This document shows, in pieces, positions 3,701-16,089 of a stretch of DNA of 32,518 nucleotides. Under the pieces are notes generated by a model. That model was not told the origin of the DNA and made no database searches. It saw only the letters and a list, made by a program, of their open reading frames with translations. A program made the translations under genes and the position numbers. The stretch's first letter is position 1, and every line of letters starts with the position of its first letter. This stretch comes from Myxococcaceae bacterium (lineage in GTDB: Bacteria; Myxococcota; Myxococcia; Myxococcales; Myxococcaceae): NCBI GenBank assembly GCA_022842905.1, contig JALHOS010000036.1, positions 1-32,518 of the forward strand. Reading direction: 5' to 3'.

Positions 3701-4808
3701 AGCGGTCGAAGAACACGAGCACCTCGAACTCCCGAAGCGGCGCCACGCGGACGATCCCCTCCAGACTCCGCTTCCCGTCGAGCCGGCTGAGCAGGTAGCG
3801 CTCGGGCGCCGTCAGCGGCTCGTCCTTCAGCTGGACGTCGCGGACCAGCAGCGTCGGCACTCGCGGCGAGGCCAGCAAGGTCTGCTTGAGGTTCGGAAGC
3901 CACGCCTCTTCGATCTGCTTGAGCAGCAGCTGGCCTTCGGGTCCCGGCGAGAGCTGCTGGGCGTGGCGGGCCAAGGCCAGCGCGTCGCGGTAGTTGTGCT
4001 GCGCGTAGAGGGACTGAGCGCTCGTCAGCAGCTCCGGCGCGGTCGGCGCTTCGCCCAGGCCCATGTCGATCTCGACCTGCACGCTCGACGTCGAGCTGTG
4101 GGGGAGCCGCGGCTTGGCCTTCACCGCGCCCAGCCGGTGGAGCGCGAAGAGGCGCTGGTAGAGGAAGAAGTCGGTCGCGTGCAGCGACAGCGCGAGCTGG
4201 TCGATCGTCTGGCCCTGCTCGATCGCCAGGTACAACTTCTCGTCGAGGCTGCCCGGCCGCGCGGGCTCCGCCAGGTTCCCCCGGTCCAGCTCGAGCTGCA
4301 CGTCACCCGACGGGAACGCCGCGCGAATGTGCTGCCAGGCCACCTGGCGGAACTCACTCTCCTTGTCGAGGTCGAGCAGCGCCACCCGCAGCGCGATGCC
4401 GTCGACCACCTTCGCCGGGCCCGGTTCGAAGCTGAAGTCACCTTCAGCCCAGGTGAACGCTTCGAGGATCGTCTCGCGGAACTTCAGCGACAGCGCGTTC
4501 TCGAGCACCGGCTCGGTGACCAGTCCGATCATCACCAAGATCCGCCCGAGGAAGATCTTCGTTTCTTTCTGGGTTTCGAAAGCGCGGTTGAACTGCTCTT
4601 CGTTGATGTGGCCCAGGTTGATCAGGAACTGCCCCAAGAACTCCCGCGGCAGGTTGCTCGACACGTTCACCACTTCGCCGTTCTCGAGGGCGATCTGCTT
4701 GCGCGTGGTGTCGCGATCCAGCGTGAGCAGCCCGCTCGCGCGCCGGTTGCCCAGGTAGACACAGAGATCCCGCAACGGCATGGTGGTGAAGGTGCCGCTC
4801 AGACTCAT
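3669..4808 (-). CDS. DUF4388 (PATAN-like) domain protein
   Basis: A 379-residue cytoplasmic protein. Residues 1-130 match the DUF4388 pattern: an N-terminal GTF..MPLRDLC..LG segment, a strand ending in IALENGEVVNV, then two helical repeats of the form LGQFLINLGHI and LGRILVMIGLV, and WAEGDFSFEPG. DUF4388 proteins are abundant in Myxococcota, where they occur with gliding-motility and two-component proteins and are thought to mediate protein-protein contacts. The middle part has helix pairs resembling tetratricopeptide repeats (about 255-300), and the C-terminus looks like a winged helix. The ATG at 4808 is only 25 bases from the divergent glutaredoxin gene. The exact role is unknown. Confidence 0.82.
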   Translation of the reverse strand: MSLSGTFTTMPLRDLCVYLGNRRASGLLTLDRDTTRKQIALENGEVVNVSSNLPREFLGQFLINLGHINEEQFNRAFETQKETKIFLGRILVMIGLVTEPVLENALSLKFRETILEAFTWAEGDFSFEPGPAKVVDGIALRVALLDLDKESEFRQVAWQHIRAAFPSGDVQLELDRGNLAEPARPGSLDEKLYLAIEQGQTIDQLALSLHATDFFLYQRLFALHRLGAVKAKPRLPHSSTSSVQVEIDMGLGEAPTAPELLTSAQSLYAQHNYRDALALARHAQQLSPGPEGQLLLKQIEEAWLPNLKQTLLASPRVPTLLVRDVQLKDEPLTAPERYLLSRLDGKRSLEGIVRVAPLREFEVLVFFDRFIAQRWIQLG

Positions 4809-4833
4809 GGCGCGCCGACCTGCAGGGGATTCA

Positions 4834-5088
4834 ATGCGGATCGAGTTCTACACCAAGCCTGGCTGCGCGTTGTGTGACGTCGCCAGCGAGCTGCTCGACG
4901 ACGCCCAAGACGAATGGGGTTTCGTGCGTACAGACTGCAACATCCTGCGACACGAAGCCTGGTTCGACCGCTACCGGTACCGGGTGCCGGTGGTGGTGAT
5001 TGATGGCACCGAGGCCCTCGAGCTGCGCTTTGATGCCGCCGCGCTGCGCGCCGCGCTGGCGCGGGCAGCCCACAAGGAGTCGTCGTGA
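4834..5088 (+). CDS. Glutaredoxin-like (DUF836-type) thiol protein
   Basis: An 84-residue cytoplasmic protein with a compact thioredoxin fold. It has a CxxC motif (CALC, Cys11 and Cys14) after the first strand (IEFYTKPG) and the cis-Pro segment YRVPVVVIDG. This is the small glutaredoxin/DUF836 family, which reduces disulphides or exchanges thiols with small partners. The ATG at 4834 was chosen because the fold begins directly there; an upstream in-frame ATG at 4780 would add 18 residues lying inside the divergent gene. The stop overlaps the GTG of the aminotransferase gene by four bases, so the pair is probably translated together. Confidence 0.85.
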   Translation: MRIEFYTKPGCALCDVASELLDDAQDEWGFVRTDCNILRHEAWFDRYRYRVPVVVIDGTEALELRFDAAALRAALARAAHKESS

Positions 5089-7966: not shown

Positions 7967-8905
7967 CTACGGCAGCGGAGGCTTCGCCGCGGCCTGCGCG
8001 CGGAGCTGCTGGACCGCCATGCGCATCATCGGCGGGGCTTCGGGGCCGGCCTGCTCGAGGTACGCCTCGAAGTTCACCAGCGCGCGCGCCGAGTCCTGCT
8101 GATCCATGGCCATCATCCCCGCGAAGAGTCGGCCGTCGTAGGCCTCGGGGTACTTCGCGGCCAAGGACTCGAGCTCGCTGAGCGCGCGGGGCAGATCGCC
8201 CTCGAGCGCGACGATCACCGACCGCCCGACGCGGGTGCGCACGTGGAACGGGTCAATCAACGTCGCGCGGTGGACCATGGGCACGGCTTCTTCGAAGCGC
8301 TGCTTGCGCATGAGCGCCAGCGCGGCGGTGGCGAGGGTGTCCGGATCATCCGGGCTGTTCTTCGCCTGCGCGAGGAGTCGCTCGAGCTTCTCGTCGACGG
8401 GCGGCGGCTGGTTCTGCATGACCGCGGGGCCCGGCCCACCGGTGGCCGACATGCCTTCGGGGCGGGAGTCGCTGGACGCGTTGAGCTGAACGCCCAAGAA
8501 CACGAAGAAGGACACGAGCCCGCCGCCCAAGAGCGCGCCCTTGAGCGTGGGGTTGTTGGCCAAGAAGCCGGTGGGCTTGGCCTGTTCCTTCTGCTCCGAT
8601 CTCGCTTCGGCCTTGCGCAGCTCGTGCTGCTTCTGATCACGCTCGCGGAGCACCTGCGCGGCGGCCTTCTGGAGTCGCTCGCGCTCGGCTTCCCACCGGG
8701 CCGCGTCCGCCAGGTGTTTGTTCGCCGTGTGCTCCTTGAGCTCGGCGATCAGCGCCTGGTACCGCGCCTGGTAGTCGTCGACCGTCTCCAGCGGCTGGCT
8801 CTTGAGGCGCGACTTGTTGATCAGCAGGTAGCCCAGCGCGGCGGCCGCCGAGCCCCCCAGCACCCACAGCCCAGGACCCCAGTTCGTCGTGGCGCCAGCG
8901 TCCAT
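7967..8905 (-). CDS. CcmI-like TPR protein of cytochrome c maturation
   Basis: A 312-residue membrane protein with two hydrophobic segments (about residues 11-28 and 118-138) and a charged coiled-coil-like stretch between them (about 60-110). Tetratricopeptide-like helix pairs follow from about 170 to the end (for example DPDTLATAALALMRKQRFEEAV and YDGRLFAGMMAMDQQDSARAL). This is the layout of CcmI/CycH-type proteins, which hold apocytochrome c for CcmF and CcmH at the periplasmic face. The ATG at 8905 overlaps the ccmH stop by one base (TGATG); a GTG three bases upstream is also possible. It is the last gene of the minus-strand ccm run. Its TPR part is only loosely similar to classical CcmI, so the name is by context. 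Confidence 0.78.
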   Translation of the reverse strand: MDAGATTNWGPGLWVLGGSAAAALGYLLINKSRLKSQPLETVDDYQARYQALIAELKEHTANKHLADAARWEAERERLQKAAAQVLRERDQKQHELRKAEARSEQKEQAKPTGFLANNPTLKGALLGGGLVSFFVFLGVQLNASSDSRPEGMSATGGPGPAVMQNQPPPVDEKLERLLAQAKNSPDDPDTLATAALALMRKQRFEEAVPMVHRATLIDPFHVRTRVGRSVIVALEGDLPRALSELESLAAKYPEAYDGRLFAGMMAMDQQDSARALVNFEAYLEQAGPEAPPMMRMAVQQLRAQAAAKPPLP

Positions 8906-9417
8906 CACTTCTCCAGATCGGCGCGGACCTGCGCCAGGTACGGGTCTTCGTCAGGGCTTTGCGGCGCGGGCGCGGCGGGCGCGGCCTTCGCGGCGTCGGG
9001 GGCGGACGGGGCTGGGGCCAGCTCCGACGGCAGCCCGCGCTTCTTGGACTGCAGCCAGATCAACAGCAGCCCCACGGCGAGCAACCCCACCGGCGCGGTC
9101 CACAGCACGGTGTTGAGCCCGCCGGTCGTCGGCTCGAGCAGCACCCACTCACCGTAGCGGGCCACGAAGTAGTCGAGGATCTCCTGGTCAGACTTGTTCT
9201 CGGCCACGAGCTCGCGGACCTTGTCGAGCTGCGCGCGGGCCATGGAAGCGGGGGAGTCGCTGATCGCCACGCCCTGGCAGACGGCGCAGCGCAGCTGTTT
9301 ACCCAGCCGCTGCACGCGGGCCTCACGCTCGGTGTCGAGCGGCGCCTGGCCTTCGCGCGGCGGGGCGTACCCCTGGCCCAGCACCATCACCAACCCCAGC
9401 GCCAACACGGTGCTCAT
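8905..9417 (-). CDS. ccmH: Cytochrome c maturation protein CcmH
   Basis: A 170-residue membrane-anchored periplasmic thiol protein. It has an N-terminal signal segment (residues 3-15) and the family motif LRCAVCQ with Cys44 and Cys47. The following helices (MARAQLDKVRELV and EILDYFVARYGEWVLLEP) are diagnostic. One transmembrane helix lies near 104-122, with an Ala/Pro-rich cytoplasmic tail. CcmH reduces the CxxCH haem-binding cysteines of apocytochrome c together with CcmG and hands them to CcmF. Its ATG overlaps the ccmG stop (ATGA), and its stop overlaps the next start, so the genes are tightly coupled. Confidence 0.95.
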   Translation of the reverse strand: MSTVLALGLVMVLGQGYAPPREGQAPLDTEREARVQRLGKQLRCAVCQGVAISDSPASMARAQLDKVRELVAENKSDQEILDYFVARYGEWVLLEPTTGGLNTVLWTAPVGLLAVGLLLIWLQSKKRGLPSELAPAPSAPDAAKAAPAAPAPQSPDEDPYLAQVRADLEK

Positions 9418-10127
9418 GGCTGCTTCACCTTCTGCTGGAGCTCGTCGGACTGCTTGGCCATGGCGAGGATCTGCTCCGCCGTCTGCCCCCCGACCGCCAG
9501 CGCGCGCACGAAGATCGTCGTGTTGTCCGCCGGCACCGGGAAGCTCGCGAGCTTCGCCTGCGTCAGCCCGTCGAGCGCCCCCTTCACCTGCGCTTCGATC
9601 GCCGGGTCCTCGAGGATCTCACTGACGCGGGCGTTGAGCGTGTAGTCGTCGAGCGGGGCGGCGTACTTCCCGCGAATCACGCCCTGCTTGGTGACGAAGT
9701 ACGTCTCCGGCACGCCGGCCACCGCGTAGTCCACCGCCACGGTGGACTTGGGATCGAACAGCTGCGTGAGCGACCAGCCGTGCTGCGCCAGGAACTGCTT
9801 GGTGTTCTCTTCGGTGTCCTCGAAGACGATGCCCAAGAAAGCGACGCGGTCCGCGAAGCGCTTCGCGCCGGCCTCGAGCACCGGGTGCTCCTGCTTGCAC
9901 GGCCCGCACCACGTCGCCCAGAAGTTGATGACGAGGGGCCGACCCGCGTAGTCCGACAGCGAGACGAACTCGCCGTTGTCCAGCCGCTTGATGCGGAAGG
10001 CCGGGGCGGGCTTGCCGTCGAGCATGAAGGGCACCGCGTGCGGATCGGTGCCGAAGGCCTTCGCCATGACGAAGAGGATGAGGCCGGTCGCGGCCAGCGC
10101 GATGCCGACGCCGATCGCTCGATTCAC
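9414..10127 (-). CDS. ccmG: Thioredoxin-like CcmG/DsbE family protein
   Basis: A 237-residue membrane-tethered thioredoxin-fold protein. An N-terminal anchor (residues 4-22) is followed by the redlike domain with WCGPC (Cys74, Cys77), the acidic insertion GIVFEDTEENTKQFL, and the cis-Pro segment GVPETYFVTKQG. It passes electrons to apocytochrome c or CcmH in the periplasm. The protein is longer than the usual 160-185 residues: about 60 extra C-terminal residues (from about 178) contain LTQAKLASFPVP and a helical tail. The GTG start overlaps the ccmF stop (GTGA), and GGAGGTAA in the end of ccmF serves as its ribosome site. Confidence 0.93.
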   Translation of the reverse strand: MNRAIGVGIALAATGLILFVMAKAFGTDPHAVPFMLDGKPAPAFRIKRLDNGEFVSLSDYAGRPLVINFWATWCGPCKQEHPVLEAGAKRFADRVAFLGIVFEDTEENTKQFLAQHGWSLTQLFDPKSTVAVDYAVAGVPETYFVTKQGVIRGKYAAPLDDYTLNARVSEILEDPAIEAQVKGALDGLTQAKLASFPVPADNTTIFVRALAVGGQTAEQILAMAKQSDELQQKVKQP

Positions 10128-12148
10128 GCGTTACCTCCGGTCGCGGCGGCTGCGGGCACGGTCGCCTCGGGGCTGGGTGAGGTCTTCTGCGCCGCCTTGC
10201 GCTGCGGCCACAGGGCGATCAGCGTCCCCAGGATCAGCAGCGGAATCGAGTACCAGATCCACCCGACCAGCGGGAACACCCAGGTGTTGAACGACGCGGT
10301 CTCGGCCTGCGGATCGTACGAGAGCAGCGACACGTACACGTCGCGGAAGACCATCTCCTGCACGCTGGGCGAGCCGATGGGGTCGGTGCTGCGCGCGTAG
10401 TAGTTCATGCGCGGGGCCTCTTCGCCGTGGTGCGCGGTGATCGTGCCGTCCGGGGAGATCACCGACACGTTCGCGCTGGTCCAGGTCTTGTGCGGCGCCT
10501 GGCCCGACTCGAGCCCGTCGAAGCGCAGCAGGTACGCGCCGACCTTGAGCGTCTCGCCCTTCTTCAGCGCGCCCGTCGCGTGCGTCTTGAACGCGGCCGA
10601 CGCGGCGATGGCGACCACGATCGCCACGATCCCCAGGTGCACCACGTAGCCGCCGAAGCGCCGGCGCGCGCGGCTGGCGCTGCGGAACAGCGCGACGAAG
10701 GCCGTCTCCTTCTGCTCGTCCATGCGCTGCTTGGCGGGCAGGAACATCTCCCGGAGCGTGATGACGGTCGCGAACGCGGCGAGCCCAAAGGCCAGCAGCG
10801 GCATGAAGCCGCGGTAGCCCAGCGCCGCGCAGACCGCGATCGTCGCCAGGCCGACGATGCCGGGGATCGTGAACTGCCGCTTGAGCACCGCGGGATCGGC
10901 CTGCCCCCATGGCAGCACCGGGCCGACGCCCATGAGGAAGAGCATGAGCAGCCCGCCGGGCAGCGCCATGGTGTTGAAGTACGGCTCGCCCACGCTGATC
11001 TTCTTCTTCTGCAGCGCTTCGGTGACCAGCGGGAACGTCGTCCCCAAGAGCACCGTGAAGGTCTGCGCCACGAACACCAGGTTGTTCACCAGGATCGACC
11101 CTTCACGCGAGGCGACCGTGGCCAGGTTCGTCTCCGCGACCAGCAGGTGTCCGCGCACCGTCAACAGCACGATGCAGAAGACGATCACGATGGCGATGAA
11201 GACCAGGAACGTGGGGCCGATGTCCGACTGCGTGAAGCTGTGCACCGAGTTGAAGACGCCCGAGCGCGTCATGAAGGTGCCGATGAGCGTGAGCACGAAG
11301 CTGCCCAGCGCGAGCGCAATCGTCCACAGCTTGAGCGACTTGCGGCGCTCGAGCACCATGGTCGAGTGAATGAACGCCGTCGCCGTGAGCCACGGCATGA
11401 ACGACGCGTTCTCCACCGGATCCCACGCCCAGTAGCCGCCCCAGCCGAGCACCGCGTACGCCCACCAGGACCCGAGGATGATGCCAATGGACAGGAACAG
11501 CCACGGCACGAGTGTCCACTTGCGCAGGGGCACCAGCCACGCGTCGCCCAGCTCACCGCGGAGCAGCGCGCCCGCGGCGATCCCGAACGGAATCGTCATG
11601 CCCACGTAGCCCAGGTAAAGCATGGGCGGGTGGATGATCATGAGCGGGTGGTTCTGCAGGAGCGGGTTGACGCCGGGGCCGTCGGACAGCGGGTTGGGGA
11701 TCGCGGTCCACGGGTTGGCCGGCCCGGCGATCAGGAACGCGAAGAACGTCGCCACCGCGGCGATCGTGCCCAGCGTCAGCAGCATGTAGCGCTCGTGCTC
11801 CTTGCGGTAGACGAGCGTGAACGCGAGCACGTACAGGCCCATGATCGCGCCCCAGAAGAGGATCGACCCTTCCAGCGCGCTCCACAGCGAGACGATGGTG
11901 AAGATCGTCGGCGTCGCCCGGCTGCCGACCTGAGAGACGTACTTCACCGAGAAGTCGTGCTCGAGCAGCGCCTTCACCATGACCAGGTTGGACCCGATCA
12001 TGGACGCGGAGAACGCGTACATGGCGCCGCGCACCCACGGCAGCGCGCCGTCGCGCCGGGTCATGCCGGTGTACAGGCCGACGACCGCGGCGAAGACCGC
12101 GCAGGCCAACCCGAAGAGGATGAGGCCGTAACCCAGAGTCGAATTCAC
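10124..12148 (-). CDS. ccmF: Cytochrome c haem lyase subunit CcmF
   Basis: A 674-residue polytopic inner-membrane protein with about 14-15 hydrophobic segments. The WWD haem-handling domain is clear (WGGYWAWDPVENASF, about residues 236-250), with conserved histidines around HPLMIIHPPMLYLG (167-180). It ligates haem from CcmE to the reduced cysteines of apocytochrome c with CcmH. A large periplasmic loop lies between the last two hydrophobic regions (about 525-620), and the tail is Ala/Pro-rich. The GTG start at 12148 fits the N-terminal signal-anchor. ccmA, B, C, D and E are not in the window, so the maturation system is split across the genome or only partly shown. Confidence 0.95.
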   Translation of the reverse strand: MNSTLGYGLILFGLACAVFAAVVGLYTGMTRRDGALPWVRGAMYAFSASMIGSNLVMVKALLEHDFSVKYVSQVGSRATPTIFTIVSLWSALEGSILFWGAIMGLYVLAFTLVYRKEHERYMLLTLGTIAAVATFFAFLIAGPANPWTAIPNPLSDGPGVNPLLQNHPLMIIHPPMLYLGYVGMTIPFGIAAGALLRGELGDAWLVPLRKWTLVPWLFLSIGIILGSWWAYAVLGWGGYWAWDPVENASFMPWLTATAFIHSTMVLERRKSLKLWTIALALGSFVLTLIGTFMTRSGVFNSVHSFTQSDIGPTFLVFIAIVIVFCIVLLTVRGHLLVAETNLATVASREGSILVNNLVFVAQTFTVLLGTTFPLVTEALQKKKISVGEPYFNTMALPGGLLMLFLMGVGPVLPWGQADPAVLKRQFTIPGIVGLATIAVCAALGYRGFMPLLAFGLAAFATVITLREMFLPAKQRMDEQKETAFVALFRSASRARRRFGGYVVHLGIVAIVVAIAASAAFKTHATGALKKGETLKVGAYLLRFDGLESGQAPHKTWTSANVSVISPDGTITAHHGEEAPRMNYYARSTDPIGSPSVQEMVFRDVYVSLLSYDPQAETASFNTWVFPLVGWIWYSIPLLILGTLIALWPQRKAAQKTSPSPEATVPAAAATGGNA

Positions 12149-12224: not shown

Positions 12225-13997
12225 TTATGCCGGCAACGCCAACAACTTCGTGGTCATGACTCGCTCGACCCACCCCTGGCGAGGCGCCGCGCCGACCGCT
12301 ACCGGCGCGTCCAAGAGCGCCTGGAGGACCCTCGGCACCTGGTACGGATCGTCGAAGCTCGTCACGTCGACCTCGCTGTACGGCACCCCGAGCGACGCTG
12401 CGCAGGACCGCACCGTCATGCCCCGCGCCGCGCTCGGAGCCAGCGACAGGAGCAGCGCCAGCGCCGACACCTGGTAGCCCACGTCGCGGAACACCCGCGC
12501 GAACTGATCGCCCGCCTCCCCAGCCTCGTCGCCGACCACGATCACCACCAGCCGCGCCGACACGGGGAACGTCAGCCCCGTCTGCGCGAGCGCCCGAACC
12601 GCCGCGGCGTGCACGGTGCCGCCGTCGGCCTTCACGGTGGCCAGCATGTGCTGCACTGCGGTGCGCGTCGCCGCCTTGGGGCGCAGGACGGTGCCGACGG
12701 TGTCGAACGTGGCGCAGTGGAGCTTCTCGAGCGGGAAGCCGGCGAGGATCTTCGAGAGCGCCTCCTTCGACTGCTCGATGGCGCCCTGCATGGACCCAGA
12801 CTTGTCGATCAGGAACAGCACGCGGACGTCGGTGTCCTTCGTCGCGGCGCTGACGGCCTTCTGCGCGGCCACGTCGGCGGCCTCGGCGAGCTTCTCCTTG
12901 AGCTGCTTGGACTGGACGTTCTTGGCGATGTTGAGGGAACGCTGGTCGGTCGCCGAGGCGATCGCCTGTTCCCAGCGCGTTCGGATCTCCGCGTCGGCCA
13001 TGAGGCCCAGGCTCTCGAGCGTCGGCGTGAGGATCCGCAGGTCGCGATCCGACAGGCTGGGGACCAGCGCCGCCATGATCGCCGGCGTCAGGCCCAGCTC
13101 CTTCGGGAGCCGGCCGACGACCTCCTTGTAGGACAGGCGCTGCGTGTCGATCGCCTCGCAGATCTCCGCTTCGGACAGCCCGTCGAAGCGGTCCGACTTC
13201 TGTACGGCCAGCCCGCTCAGGCCGACGGTGCGGTGCCCCGCCGCGGCCTGCTTCTGCTTCCAGCCGAGCACCTCGAAGAACGCTTGGCCTTGCGGCTTGT
13301 AGCCGGCCTTGCGCGCGAGCTGCTTGATCGTCTCCTTGAAGCCGGCCTTCACCAGCCCGGCGAGGAGCGCGGGGTTCTGCTCTCGGTACGCCAGCCACTT
13401 GGTCGCCGCGCGCTTCCAGCGACCCAGCGGAGGCTTCTTCGCGGCGGGGTCGCCGAAGCCGGCCTTGCGGTTGAGCTTGGCGATCGCCGGGAGCTCGAGG
13501 AGCTCAGCCACGCGCAGCACCGCCTTGGGCGTCAACATGCGCGTCGACTTCTTCTCGTAGAGCAGCAGCATCGCCTCGCCGATCTGCCGGTAGTCGTCGT
13601 CGTGGAAGGCGACCTCGCCGTCGTCTTCGCGCACGGGTTGGCCAGAGCGGCTCTGCACGAGCATGAGCGCCGCGCAGGCGACCTTGAGATCGCGCCAGTC
13701 GGTCTGCGTGAGCGCGTAGCTGGCGAAGTGGGCCATGAGGTCCTGGTTGAGCGCGTAGATCTCCAGGAGCTTCTCGTAGAGCGTCACCGCGGCGGACTCG
13801 TGCAGCCCGGGCGAGACGAGCTTGGCGCCCTTCGGCAGCGCGGCGCCCTTCTTCGGCCGCGGCGCCCACTTGCCCTGCAGCTCGAAGCCGGGTCGGTTGT
13901 GCCAGAGGTGCGCCGAGCTGGAGAGGACCAAGTCGAGCAGCTTCTCGGCGGGGCCGAGCTGGGCTTCGGGGAGCAACGGCTTCTTCGTGGTAGCCAT
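12225..13997 (-). CDS. VWA domain protein with helical N-terminal region
   Basis: A 590-residue cytoplasmic protein. The C-terminal third is a von Willebrand A domain with the metal-site motif DxSxS as DKSGS (Asp398-Ser402) after the strand VRVLFLI. A TVHAAAV segment supplies the usual Thr, and VVIVVGDEAGE the later Asp. The first 390 residues are Lys/Ala-rich helices. The order (long helical region, then VWA) recalls TROVE/Ro60 RNA-binding proteins, but I see no decisive TROVE signature, so this is only a structural analogy. The ATG at 13997 starts MATTKKP; a longer frame upstream runs into the divergent gene. The stop is 76 bases from ccmF, so co-transcription with ccm genes is likely. Confidence 0.8.
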   Translation of the reverse strand: MATTKKPLLPEAQLGPAEKLLDLVLSSSAHLWHNRPGFELQGKWAPRPKKGAALPKGAKLVSPGLHESAAVTLYEKLLEIYALNQDLMAHFASYALTQTDWRDLKVACAALMLVQSRSGQPVREDDGEVAFHDDDYRQIGEAMLLLYEKKSTRMLTPKAVLRVAELLELPAIAKLNRKAGFGDPAAKKPPLGRWKRAATKWLAYREQNPALLAGLVKAGFKETIKQLARKAGYKPQGQAFFEVLGWKQKQAAAGHRTVGLSGLAVQKSDRFDGLSEAEICEAIDTQRLSYKEVVGRLPKELGLTPAIMAALVPSLSDRDLRILTPTLESLGLMADAEIRTRWEQAIASATDQRSLNIAKNVQSKQLKEKLAEAADVAAQKAVSAATKDTDVRVLFLIDKSGSMQGAIEQSKEALSKILAGFPLEKLHCATFDTVGTVLRPKAATRTAVQHMLATVKADGGTVHAAAVRALAQTGLTFPVSARLVVIVVGDEAGEAGDQFARVFRDVGYQVSALALLLSLAPSAARGMTVRSCAASLGVPYSEVDVTSFDDPYQVPRVLQALLDAPVAVGAAPRQGWVERVMTTKLLALPA

Positions 13998-14082
13998 GGG
14001 CGCGCAGAACAGCAGTGATGTGGGAGGCTGCGCCACGACTTTGTGCGGCGCGCCGGTGTGACGGTTCGAGAGGAGCGGTGAC

Positions 14083-14463
14083 GTGAAGAACGGGACGTTG
14101 GGTGTGGCGGTGGCGGTGGTGCTCGGCGCGGCGTGTGCGCCGACTCGGCCGCAGCAGACGGAGTTCGAGCTCACCTACTACTACTTGAAGTTCTGACGCG
14201 TCTGCGACGCCACGAAGGCGGCCGTGAGCCGCTTGCCAACGGAGCTGCCGGGCCTGGTCACGATTCGGCTCGTCCCGCACACGGACGCCGAGGCGGAGGC
14301 CGCGGTGCGCACGAACGACTGGAGCAGTCACGGGGCGATCGTGCGGCGAGGCAGCAAGGTGATCTACCGCGCGGCGGATCACCGCGTGGCGGCGCTCGAC
14401 ATGCACCGGGCGGTGCTCGCCGAGCTGGACCTGCCGCCGTGGTGCCAGCCGTTCACTCAGTGA
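14083..14463 (+). CDS. Small thioredoxin-like protein, probable selenoprotein (TGA 14194-14196 read as Sec, UxxC motif)
   Basis: A GTG at 14083 with GAGAGGAG at 14068-14075 opens a 126-residue protein if the TGA at codon 38 is read through. A signal segment (hydrophobic residues 6-18, LGAAC) precedes a strand ELTYYYLKF. Then comes U38-R-V-C41, that is, a UxxC redox motif in the exact place of CxxC in a thioredoxin fold. The frame continues with VSRLPTELPGLVTIRLV, WSSHGAIVRRGSKVIYRAADHRV and a final helix, ending at TGA 14461-14463. The first part alone (37 codons) would be a signal peptide and one strand, which makes no sense as a protein. A candidate SECIS hairpin follows the TGA. It is divergent from the VWA gene and ends just before a hairpin shared with the SPFH gene. 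Confidence 0.75.
14214..14236 (+). promoter_or_regulatory. Candidate bacterial SECIS element of the UxxC gene
   Basis: GCGGC 14218-14222 pairs with GCCGC 14228-14232 around a five-base loop CGUGA. One G-U and one A-U pair extend it outward, followed by an A-G mismatch and another G-C pair. The loop begins 26 bases after the TGA and has G at its second position. That fits the published description of bacterial SECIS elements (loop 16-37 bases from UGA, G in the first two loop bases), as I recall it. Confidence 0.55.
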
Positions 14464-15650: not shown

Positions 15651-16013
15651 GGTGTCCCTCCTCGTGGTGCCGCCCTTCGAAAAGCGACGGGGGCCGCCGC
15701 GCTCACGGGGGCCGACCCACGCGCCTGACGAGCTCGAGAACTTCCTCCAGCTCACCAAACCCGCCGCGGCAGACGCTCGAGCGACACCTTCAGGCCGACT
15801 GCTCCTGAAGGGGCCTTCGAGGCCGAGTGGAGTGGGGCGTGGCTTCCTGCGAGCGCCTCACGGTGATCGTCGCAGCCCTGCAAACGAGCCTGCGGGCTTC
15901 TTCGACCGTGGCGAGGCGCTGGCGACTTCTCTTCGGGCCAGGCGTCTACGACGTCCACCCCACCGGCGTGCTGCGGCCGTGGGACTGCTCCAGCGTGCGC
16001 GACAGCCCCCAGG
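15651..16013. other. Intergenic stretch with a hairpin, no gene seen
   Basis: No frame here reads like a protein. An inverted repeat CCTTCAGG (15787-15794) / CCTGAAGG (15804-15811) forms an 8-bp stem, followed by GGCC-TTCGA-GGCC. I cannot assign either a function. The stretch just upstream of the SPFH gene presumably holds its promoter, but no clear -35/-10 pair was found. Confidence 0.4.
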
Positions 16014-16089
16014 TTGGGCGAGGAGGAGTTGAACCTCCGACGGCGAGACGACCAAGTCTCGTGCTCTAACCAGGCTGAGCTATCGCTCC
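16014..16089 (-). tRNA. tRNA-like sequence, probably degenerate (anticodon uncertain)
   Basis: On the minus strand a 76-base cloverleaf can be drawn. The D arm (GCTC/GAGC with the GGTTA loop), a 5-bp anticodon stem (CGAGA/TCTCG), a five-base variable loop and a perfect T arm (GGAGG-TTCAACT-CCTCC) are all good. Two parts are not normal: the anticodon loop has eight bases (CTTGGTCG) instead of seven, and the acceptor stem GGAGCGA/TCGCCCA has mismatches at pairs 1 and 3. By position the anticodon would be UGG (Pro); by resemblance of TTGGT it would be GGU (Thr). CCA is not encoded. It is either a decayed tRNA or an unusual one with an enlarged loop. It is not a tRNA-Sec. Confidence 0.5.

What the first reader, a model, noticed from the sequence alone, without database searches (positions are those of the whole stretch)
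14083..14463. Second in-frame TGA gene: exported thioredoxin-like protein with UxxC
A strong ribosome site and GTG lead through a signal segment and one strand to TGA, with Cys exactly three positions later (U-R-V-C). The frame stays coding-like for 88 more codons to a stop. A TGA falling by chance in the first position of a CxxC-type site is unlikely. I do not recognise a named family, so this may be a poorly described selenoprotein.
Basis: partly seen in the sequence, partly recalled or inferred. Interest (0 to 1): 0.85.

Follow-up and report, generated by a model that had tools for sequence, protein, structure and literature searches.

The report
Uncatalogued myxobacterial selenocysteine thioredoxin-like lipoprotein
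A gene interrupted by what looks like a stop codon is in fact very probably read through with the rare amino acid selenocysteine, giving a small membrane-anchored, thioredoxin-shaped protein of uncultured myxobacteria that no database family or selenoprotein catalogue I searched contains.

Summary
GTG 14083 to stop 14461 encodes 126 residues, with an in-frame TGA at codon 38 and Cys at codon 41 (U-R-V-C). Fifteen homologues were found, all in one myxobacterial family. Fourteen have TGA at exactly this codon; one has Cys. In TGA copies the ten codons after TGA keep 94.5% synonymous identity (46-73% elsewhere); the Cys copy falls to 31% there. All 15 TGA copies fold a hairpin with loop CGUGA/C, 26 nt after UGA, meeting the published bacterial SECIS constraints; the Cys copy has lost it. 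The genome carries SelA, SelB, SelD and tRNA-Sec. The predicted structure is a thioredoxin fold (pLDDT 86). An invariant lipobox-like Cys suggests a lipoprotein. No Pfam or NCBIfam family matches, and a 2026 catalogue of prokaryotic selenoproteins lists nothing that fits. The cis-proline typical of thioredoxin folds is replaced by Gly in an invariant Ser-His-Gly; an invariant Asp-His-Arg lies in the loop expected to face the active site. Most likely it is a membrane-anchored periplasmic selenol/thiol oxidoreductase; its substrate is unknown, and metal or cluster binding is the main open alternative.

The parts
14083..14463 (+). Selenoprotein gene, GTG start, 126 residues plus TGA stop (in-frame TGA read as Sec)
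   Evidence: 15 homologues, aligned along the whole length; coding bias on both sides of the TGA
14070..14075 (+). Shine-Dalgarno GAGGAG, 7 nt before GTG
   Evidence: Read from the sequence
14083..14136 (+). Signal segment ending in the lipoprotein-type Cys18 (codon 14134-14136)
   Evidence: Cys18 invariant in 16/16. Homologues have canonical lipoboxes such as LLLTAC; the window's own LGAAC is atypical at -3
14194..14205 (+). U-R-V-C motif: Sec codon TGA 14194-14196, resolving Cys 14203-14205
   Evidence: TGA in 14 of 15 homologues and TGT (Cys) in L014
14197..14226 (+). Codons +1 to +10, under synonymous constraint only in TGA copies
   Evidence: Synonymous identity 94.5% versus 46-73% elsewhere; Cys copy 31%
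14217..14233 (+). bSECIS hairpin: stem 14217-14222/14228-14233, loop CGUGA 14223-14227, 26 nt after UGA
   Evidence: Folds in all 15 TGA copies at -7.7 to -12.9 kcal/mol and not in the Cys copy; two pairs with compensatory changes, one of them seen in the window itself
14326..14334 (+). Invariant Ser82-His83-Gly84, Gly84 at the cis-proline position at the start of the third strand of the fold
   Evidence: Invariant; strand 83-89; Gly84 aligns with the cis-Pro of a Plasmodium thioredoxin, PDB 4o32/3ul3
14377..14385 (+). Invariant Asp99-His100-Arg101 in the loop between the last strand and last helix, expected to face the active site
   Evidence: Invariant; between strand 92-98 and helix 104-114. 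Proximity to Sec is inferred from thioredoxin topology, not measured

Best explanation
The gene encodes a selenoprotein of a small, apparently uncatalogued family restricted, as far as sampled, to one family of mostly uncultured myxobacteria. The UGA at codon 38 is decoded as selenocysteine by SelB and tRNA-Sec, directed by a hairpin 26 nt downstream (comparative evidence shown; decoding itself not observed). The product is exported and lipid-anchored at Cys18 (inferred). Its single thioredoxin-fold domain carries Sec38-Arg-Val-Cys41 at the start of the first helix (predicted). Most likely the Sec selenolate attacks an oxidised substrate (a disulfide, a peroxide or a sulfenic acid) in the periplasm, Cys41 resolves the selenenyl-sulfide, and a partner thiol system re-reduces it (inferred from UxxC chemistry). 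Invariant His83, Asp99, His100 and Arg101 would shape the site in place of the usual cis-proline (inferred). The substrate and electron donor are not identified.
For: 14 of 15 homologues have TGA at the same codon and one has Cys. Synonymous constraint covers the ten codons after TGA and is lost in the Cys copy. A hairpin satisfying the four constraints of the bSECIS model given in PMC13188914 occurs in 15/15 TGA copies and not in the Cys copy, with compensatory changes. Sec machinery is complete: SelA 521 bits, SelB N-terminal part 296 bits, SelD 378 bits, tRNA-Sec 71.9 bits, all over cut-off. The genome with the Cys copy shows neither SelA nor a strong SelB match. AlphaFold pLDDT 85.8 gives a thioredoxin fold and Foldseek's PDB matches are thioredoxins, best E 7e-5. 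The profile also matches PDB thioredoxins weakly at E 0.002. Cys18 is invariant.
Against: There is no direct proof of Sec insertion. The SECIS hairpin alone is not specific: 32 of 761 TGA triplets in the window have such a hairpin at the same spot. Covariation rests on few changes (2 compensatory cells; 14 of 500 shuffles do as well). RNAalifold prefers a different consensus fold. The lipobox of the window copy is atypical. The cis-proline expected of thiol-disulfide oxidoreductases is missing. SelB is found only as an N-terminal part in this MAG. The Cys-copy genome is only 79% complete, so its missing SelA/SelB is weak evidence.
Confidence: 0.82

Rival explanations
1. The protein is a Sec-containing thioredoxin fold, but it binds a metal ion or iron-sulfur/copper centre through Sec38, Cys41 and His83/His100, and acts as a metal chaperone, scavenger or sensor and not as a thiol-disulfide oxidoreductase.
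For: The cis-proline that normally blocks metal binding at CxxC (Su et al. 2007, as cited in PMC2757866 and PMC6210436) is replaced by an invariant Gly preceded by His. Two invariant His lie in loops expected to flank the site. Relatives lie next to VWA_CoxE or MoxR/DUF58 genes; CoxE-type proteins are linked to metal-centre maturation (general knowledge).
Against: No metal-protein family match. One homologue has Cys at the Sec position, and most Sec UxxC thioredoxin folds are thought to act in thiol redox. Spatial closeness of the His residues to Sec was not measured.
Confidence: 0.12
2. The TGA is a true stop; a separate protein starts downstream (for example GTG 14224).
For: A mechanical ORF begins at GTG 14224 and codes to 14463.
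Against: Conservation runs from the lipobox through TYYYL up to the TGA and continues after it in 15 homologues. The Cys copy is one continuous ORF. GTG 14224 lies inside the hairpin loop. A protein starting there would lack the first strand and the active site.
Confidence: 0.02
3. UGA is read as Trp, Cys or by plain readthrough and not as Sec.
For: An in-frame TGA alone does not say which residue is inserted.
Against: Other genes here use TGA as an ordinary stop. The genome has full Sec machinery. The hairpin and synonymous constraint are specific to the TGA copies. The homologue without TGA has Cys, the usual Sec counterpart.
Confidence: 0.02
4. Sequencing error or pseudogene with a nonsense mutation.
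For: The genome is fragmented, 667 contigs.
Against: The same TGA occurs in 14 other genomes from several genera, with protein-level conservation on both sides.
Confidence: 0.01

Closest known systems
Thioredoxin (PF00085), including Sec-containing bacterial Trx with UxxC
   Same: Predicted fold, topology and position of UxxC at the start of the first helix; weak profile match to PDB thioredoxins
   Different: No PF00085 match for any of 16 members at E<=1; URVC and not WCGPC; cis-Pro replaced by Gly in SHG; lipoprotein-type signal
UxxC thioredoxin-like selenoproteins in the PMC13188914 catalogue (GOS_C NF045500, SaoT NF040730, HUIPC-motif NF047660, DsbG-like NF041057, thiol:disulfide interchange protein PF13098)
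   Same: Thioredoxin-like proteins with UxxC, mostly predicted by Sec/Cys pairing
   Different: None of these models matched any of the 16 members at E<=1 in the NCBIfam or Pfam scans. The best seleno-model was UXX-star family 3 (NF047338), one member at E 0.043
CcmG/DsbE/ResA-type membrane-anchored periplasmic thiol oxidoreductases
   Same: Membrane-anchored, periplasmic thioredoxin fold (inferred); a CcmG-like protein is encoded at 9414-10127 in the window
   Different: No AhpC-TSA/Redoxin match; the Ccm cluster is not found in the flanks of the named relatives

Membership tests
Bacterial selenoprotein (Sec-UGA decoded by SelB/SECIS) | In-frame UGA conserved among homologues, with Cys as the alternative | tested here: met
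   14 of 15 homologues TGA, 1 TGT
[quoted passage not shown]
   15/15 TGA copies, 0/1 Cys copy; model from PMC13188914; background 32/761 TGA
Bacterial selenoprotein (Sec-UGA decoded by SelB/SECIS) | SelA, SelB, SelD and tRNA-Sec in the same genome | tested here: met
   SelB only as an N-terminal part
Bacterial selenoprotein (Sec-UGA decoded by SelB/SECIS) | Selenium found in the protein | not testable with these tools
   Needs 75Se labelling or mass spectrometry
[quoted passage not shown]
   (predicted model)
Thioredoxin (PF00085) | Match to the family model | tested here: not met
   No match among 16 members at E<=1
[quoted passage not shown]
   Invariant Gly84 there, preceded by His83
Catalogued Trx-like selenoprotein families in NCBIfam (SaoT, GOS_C, HUIPC, DsbG-like, UXX-star) | Score over curated cut-off | tested here: not met
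   No convincing family match; best weak match NF047697 TrxA E 0.0088
Bacterial lipoprotein | Signal segment with lipobox [LVI][ASTVI][GAS]C | tested here: inconclusive
   Cys invariant and lipobox canonical in several homologues; the window copy has G at -3

The most novel reading that the evidence does not exclude
A thioredoxin-fold selenoprotein lipoprotein whose active site has replaced the cis-proline by an invariant Ser-His-Gly and added Asp-His-Arg, making Sec-Cys-His a metal- or cluster-binding or otherwise new catalytic site in the myxobacterial cell envelope.
Probability: 0.15. Interest if true: 0.75.

Novelty: new variant of a known kind. Interest (0 to 1): 0.55.

Why it matters
It adds a family, with a Sec/Cys pair and a visible SECIS, to the more than 110 known prokaryotic selenoprotein families, in myxobacteria, for which I found no described selenoprotein in the papers searched. 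A standard-code ORF call breaks the gene at the TGA, so the family is easily missed. The natural Sec/Cys pair, with the hairpin lost in the Cys copy, is a clean test case for SECIS evolution. The missing cis-proline makes it a test of what that residue does in thioredoxin folds.

Tried and rejected
Single-sequence scan of genome contigs found nothing; the alignment-based scan did. One archaeal hit from it (L049) lies in a frame broken by stops and is taken as chance. Weak phylum hits G175, G149 and G085 cover only part of the protein and did not recur with the profile. An alternative longer hairpin (columns 14-24/29-38) has no covariation support, and the RNAalifold consensus has no compensatory pair; the 24-29/35-40 hairpin was preferred. 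Rfam has no matching SECIS family in the region. Conserved operon partners were sought: the gene stands alone. A VWA_CoxE gene (12225-13997) is next door in five relatives, and Porin_O_P plus DUF58/MoxR genes in others, so the neighbourhood gives no clear pathway. The Ccm cluster in the window is not conserved nearby. The tree could not place the Cys copy firmly, though it belongs to the same genus (g16) as four Sec copies. Literature: the 2026 review and deep-Sep show no such family; Haft and Tolstoy 2025 is not held.

Full report
OBSERVATION. The described feature is exactly where stated. GTG 14083 opens a frame of 37 codons, TGA at 14194-14196, and 88 further codons to TGA 14461-14463; with TGA as Sec the product is VKNGTLGVAVAVVLGAACAPTRPQQTEFELTYYYLKF-U-RVCDATKAAV...WCQPFTQ. 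GAGGAG lies 7 nt before GTG. Codon-position GC is typical of coding sequence on both sides of the TGA (third position 0.92 and 0.93), and a codon-score screen of the window ranked this TGA first.

CONSERVATION. A six-frame search of 193 related genomes found 15 clear homologues in the same taxonomic family, from several genera; 14 carry a TGA inside, and one (G059, locus L014) carries none. Reading the loci shows the TGA at the same codon in every case, and TGT (Cys) in L014. The alignment A1 of 16 proteins has invariant Cys18, Thr31, Tyr32, Tyr34, Leu35, the Sec/Cys column 38, Val40, Cys41, Ser82-His83-Gly84 and Asp99-His100-Arg101, so conservation lies on both sides of the TGA. A profile search of 195 genomes of the phylum found the family only in the same taxonomic family, in 16 genomes. 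The named collection gives the same group: MAGs titled Archangium sp., Myxococcaceae, Myxococcales, Archangiaceae and Myxococcus sp.. This excludes a sequencing error, a pseudogene and a chance TGA.

SECIS. In the TGA copies, pairs of sequences that share an amino acid in codons +1 to +10 use the same codon 94.5% of the time, against 46-73% in other stretches of the gene. The Cys copy shares codons with the TGA copies only 31% of the time there and 61% elsewhere. So the constraint is on the nucleic acid, and it vanished when Sec was replaced by Cys. The segment folds in all 15 TGA copies (window included) into a hairpin with loop CGUGA or CGUGC starting 26 nt after UGA (window 14217-14233; -7.7 to -12.9 kcal/mol), and not in the Cys copy (-4.9, no such hairpin). 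The hairpin meets the four constraints of the bSECIS model quoted in PMC13188914, including G then U in the loop. Two of its six pairs show compensatory change, one of them C-G to G-C in the window itself. By itself the hairpin is not rare (32 of 761 TGA triplets), and the consensus folding program prefers another structure without compensatory pairs. The weight therefore rests on its conservation in 15 of 15 and its loss in the Cys copy. Rfam has no matching family there.

MACHINERY. The genome has SelA (C287, 521 bits), SelD (C66, 378 bits), tRNA-Sec (C3, 71.9 bits) and SelB (C31, 296 bits, matched over its N-terminal part only), all above curated cut-offs. Among 30 genomes of the family, the one with the Cys copy lacks SelA and any strong SelB match, but it is only 79% complete. 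Some genomes with TGA copies also miss one of the two (G047 SelA; G017, G026, G042 strong SelB), which may reflect fragmented assemblies.

FOLD. AlphaFold2 on A1 gave mean pLDDT 85.8 with the order strand 28-34, helix 39-49, strand 59-65, helix 69-78, strands 83-89 and 92-98, helix 104-114: the plain thioredoxin fold with Sec38 just before the first helix. Foldseek against the PDB returned thioredoxins (best E 7e-5, TM 0.5-0.6 by query length). The profile matches PDB thioredoxins weakly (E 0.002). In that alignment Gly84 lies opposite the cis-proline of a Plasmodium thioredoxin, with His83 before it. The cis-proline is said to be more strongly conserved across thioredoxin-fold groups than the CxxC pair, and may prevent metal binding (PMC2757866); changing it in human Trx1 allows a [2Fe-2S] cluster to be incorporated (PMC6210436). 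The Asp-His-Arg triplet sits in the last strand-helix loop, which in thioredoxins faces the active site (general knowledge). I could not measure distances in the model.

LOCATION. Cys18 is invariant and several homologues have textbook lipoboxes (for example LLLTAC, LVLAGC), so the protein is probably a lipoprotein exposed outside the cytoplasm. The window's own LGAAC is not canonical at position -3.

NEIGHBOURHOOD. The gene stands alone. In the window and five named relatives it is next to a divergent VWA_CoxE-domain gene. In the other main group it lies between a Porin_O_P gene and DUF58/MoxR genes. No redox partner is consistently linked.

NOVELTY. None of the 16 members matches a Pfam or NCBIfam family convincingly (best redox-family NCBIfam values are TrxA E 0.0088 and UXX-star family 3 E 0.043). 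The catalogue in the 2026 review PMC13188914 lists many UxxC thioredoxin-like families, but the words lipoprotein and myxo- do not occur in it, and deep-Sep (PMC12013277) reports no such family. Haft and Tolstoy 2025 could not be read, though the catalogue cites NCBIfam accessions for their families and NCBIfam was searched. I therefore call it an uncatalogued family of a known kind, with an unusual active site.

MECHANISM. Shown by comparison: conserved Sec codon, SECIS, Cys alternative, Sec machinery. Predicted: thioredoxin fold. Inferred: lipid anchor, periplasmic thiol/selenol redox cycle with Sec38 attacking and Cys41 resolving. Unknown: substrate, electron donor, and whether the SHG/DHR residues serve catalysis or metal binding.

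Noticed in passing
It matches several rhodanese seleno-models below cut-off.
   Followed up: partly
window 7967-12148 (-): Cytochrome c maturation cluster: CcmF, a CcmG/DsbE-like thioredoxin, CcmH and a TPR protein.
   Followed up: no
window 4780-5088 (+): Small glutaredoxin-like protein with CxxC (MRIEFYTKPGCALCDV), weak matches to glutaredoxin 3 and the Uxx-star family.
   Followed up: no
window 16012-16089 (-): ARAGORN reports a tRNA with an undetermined type and a four-base anticodon reading (tRNA-???, tggt).
   Followed up: no
G059 (loci L014, L047): A genome of the same genus as Sec copies has Cys in place of Sec, the hairpin lost and no SelA/SelB detected: a possible case of loss of the Sec trait.
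   Followed up: partly
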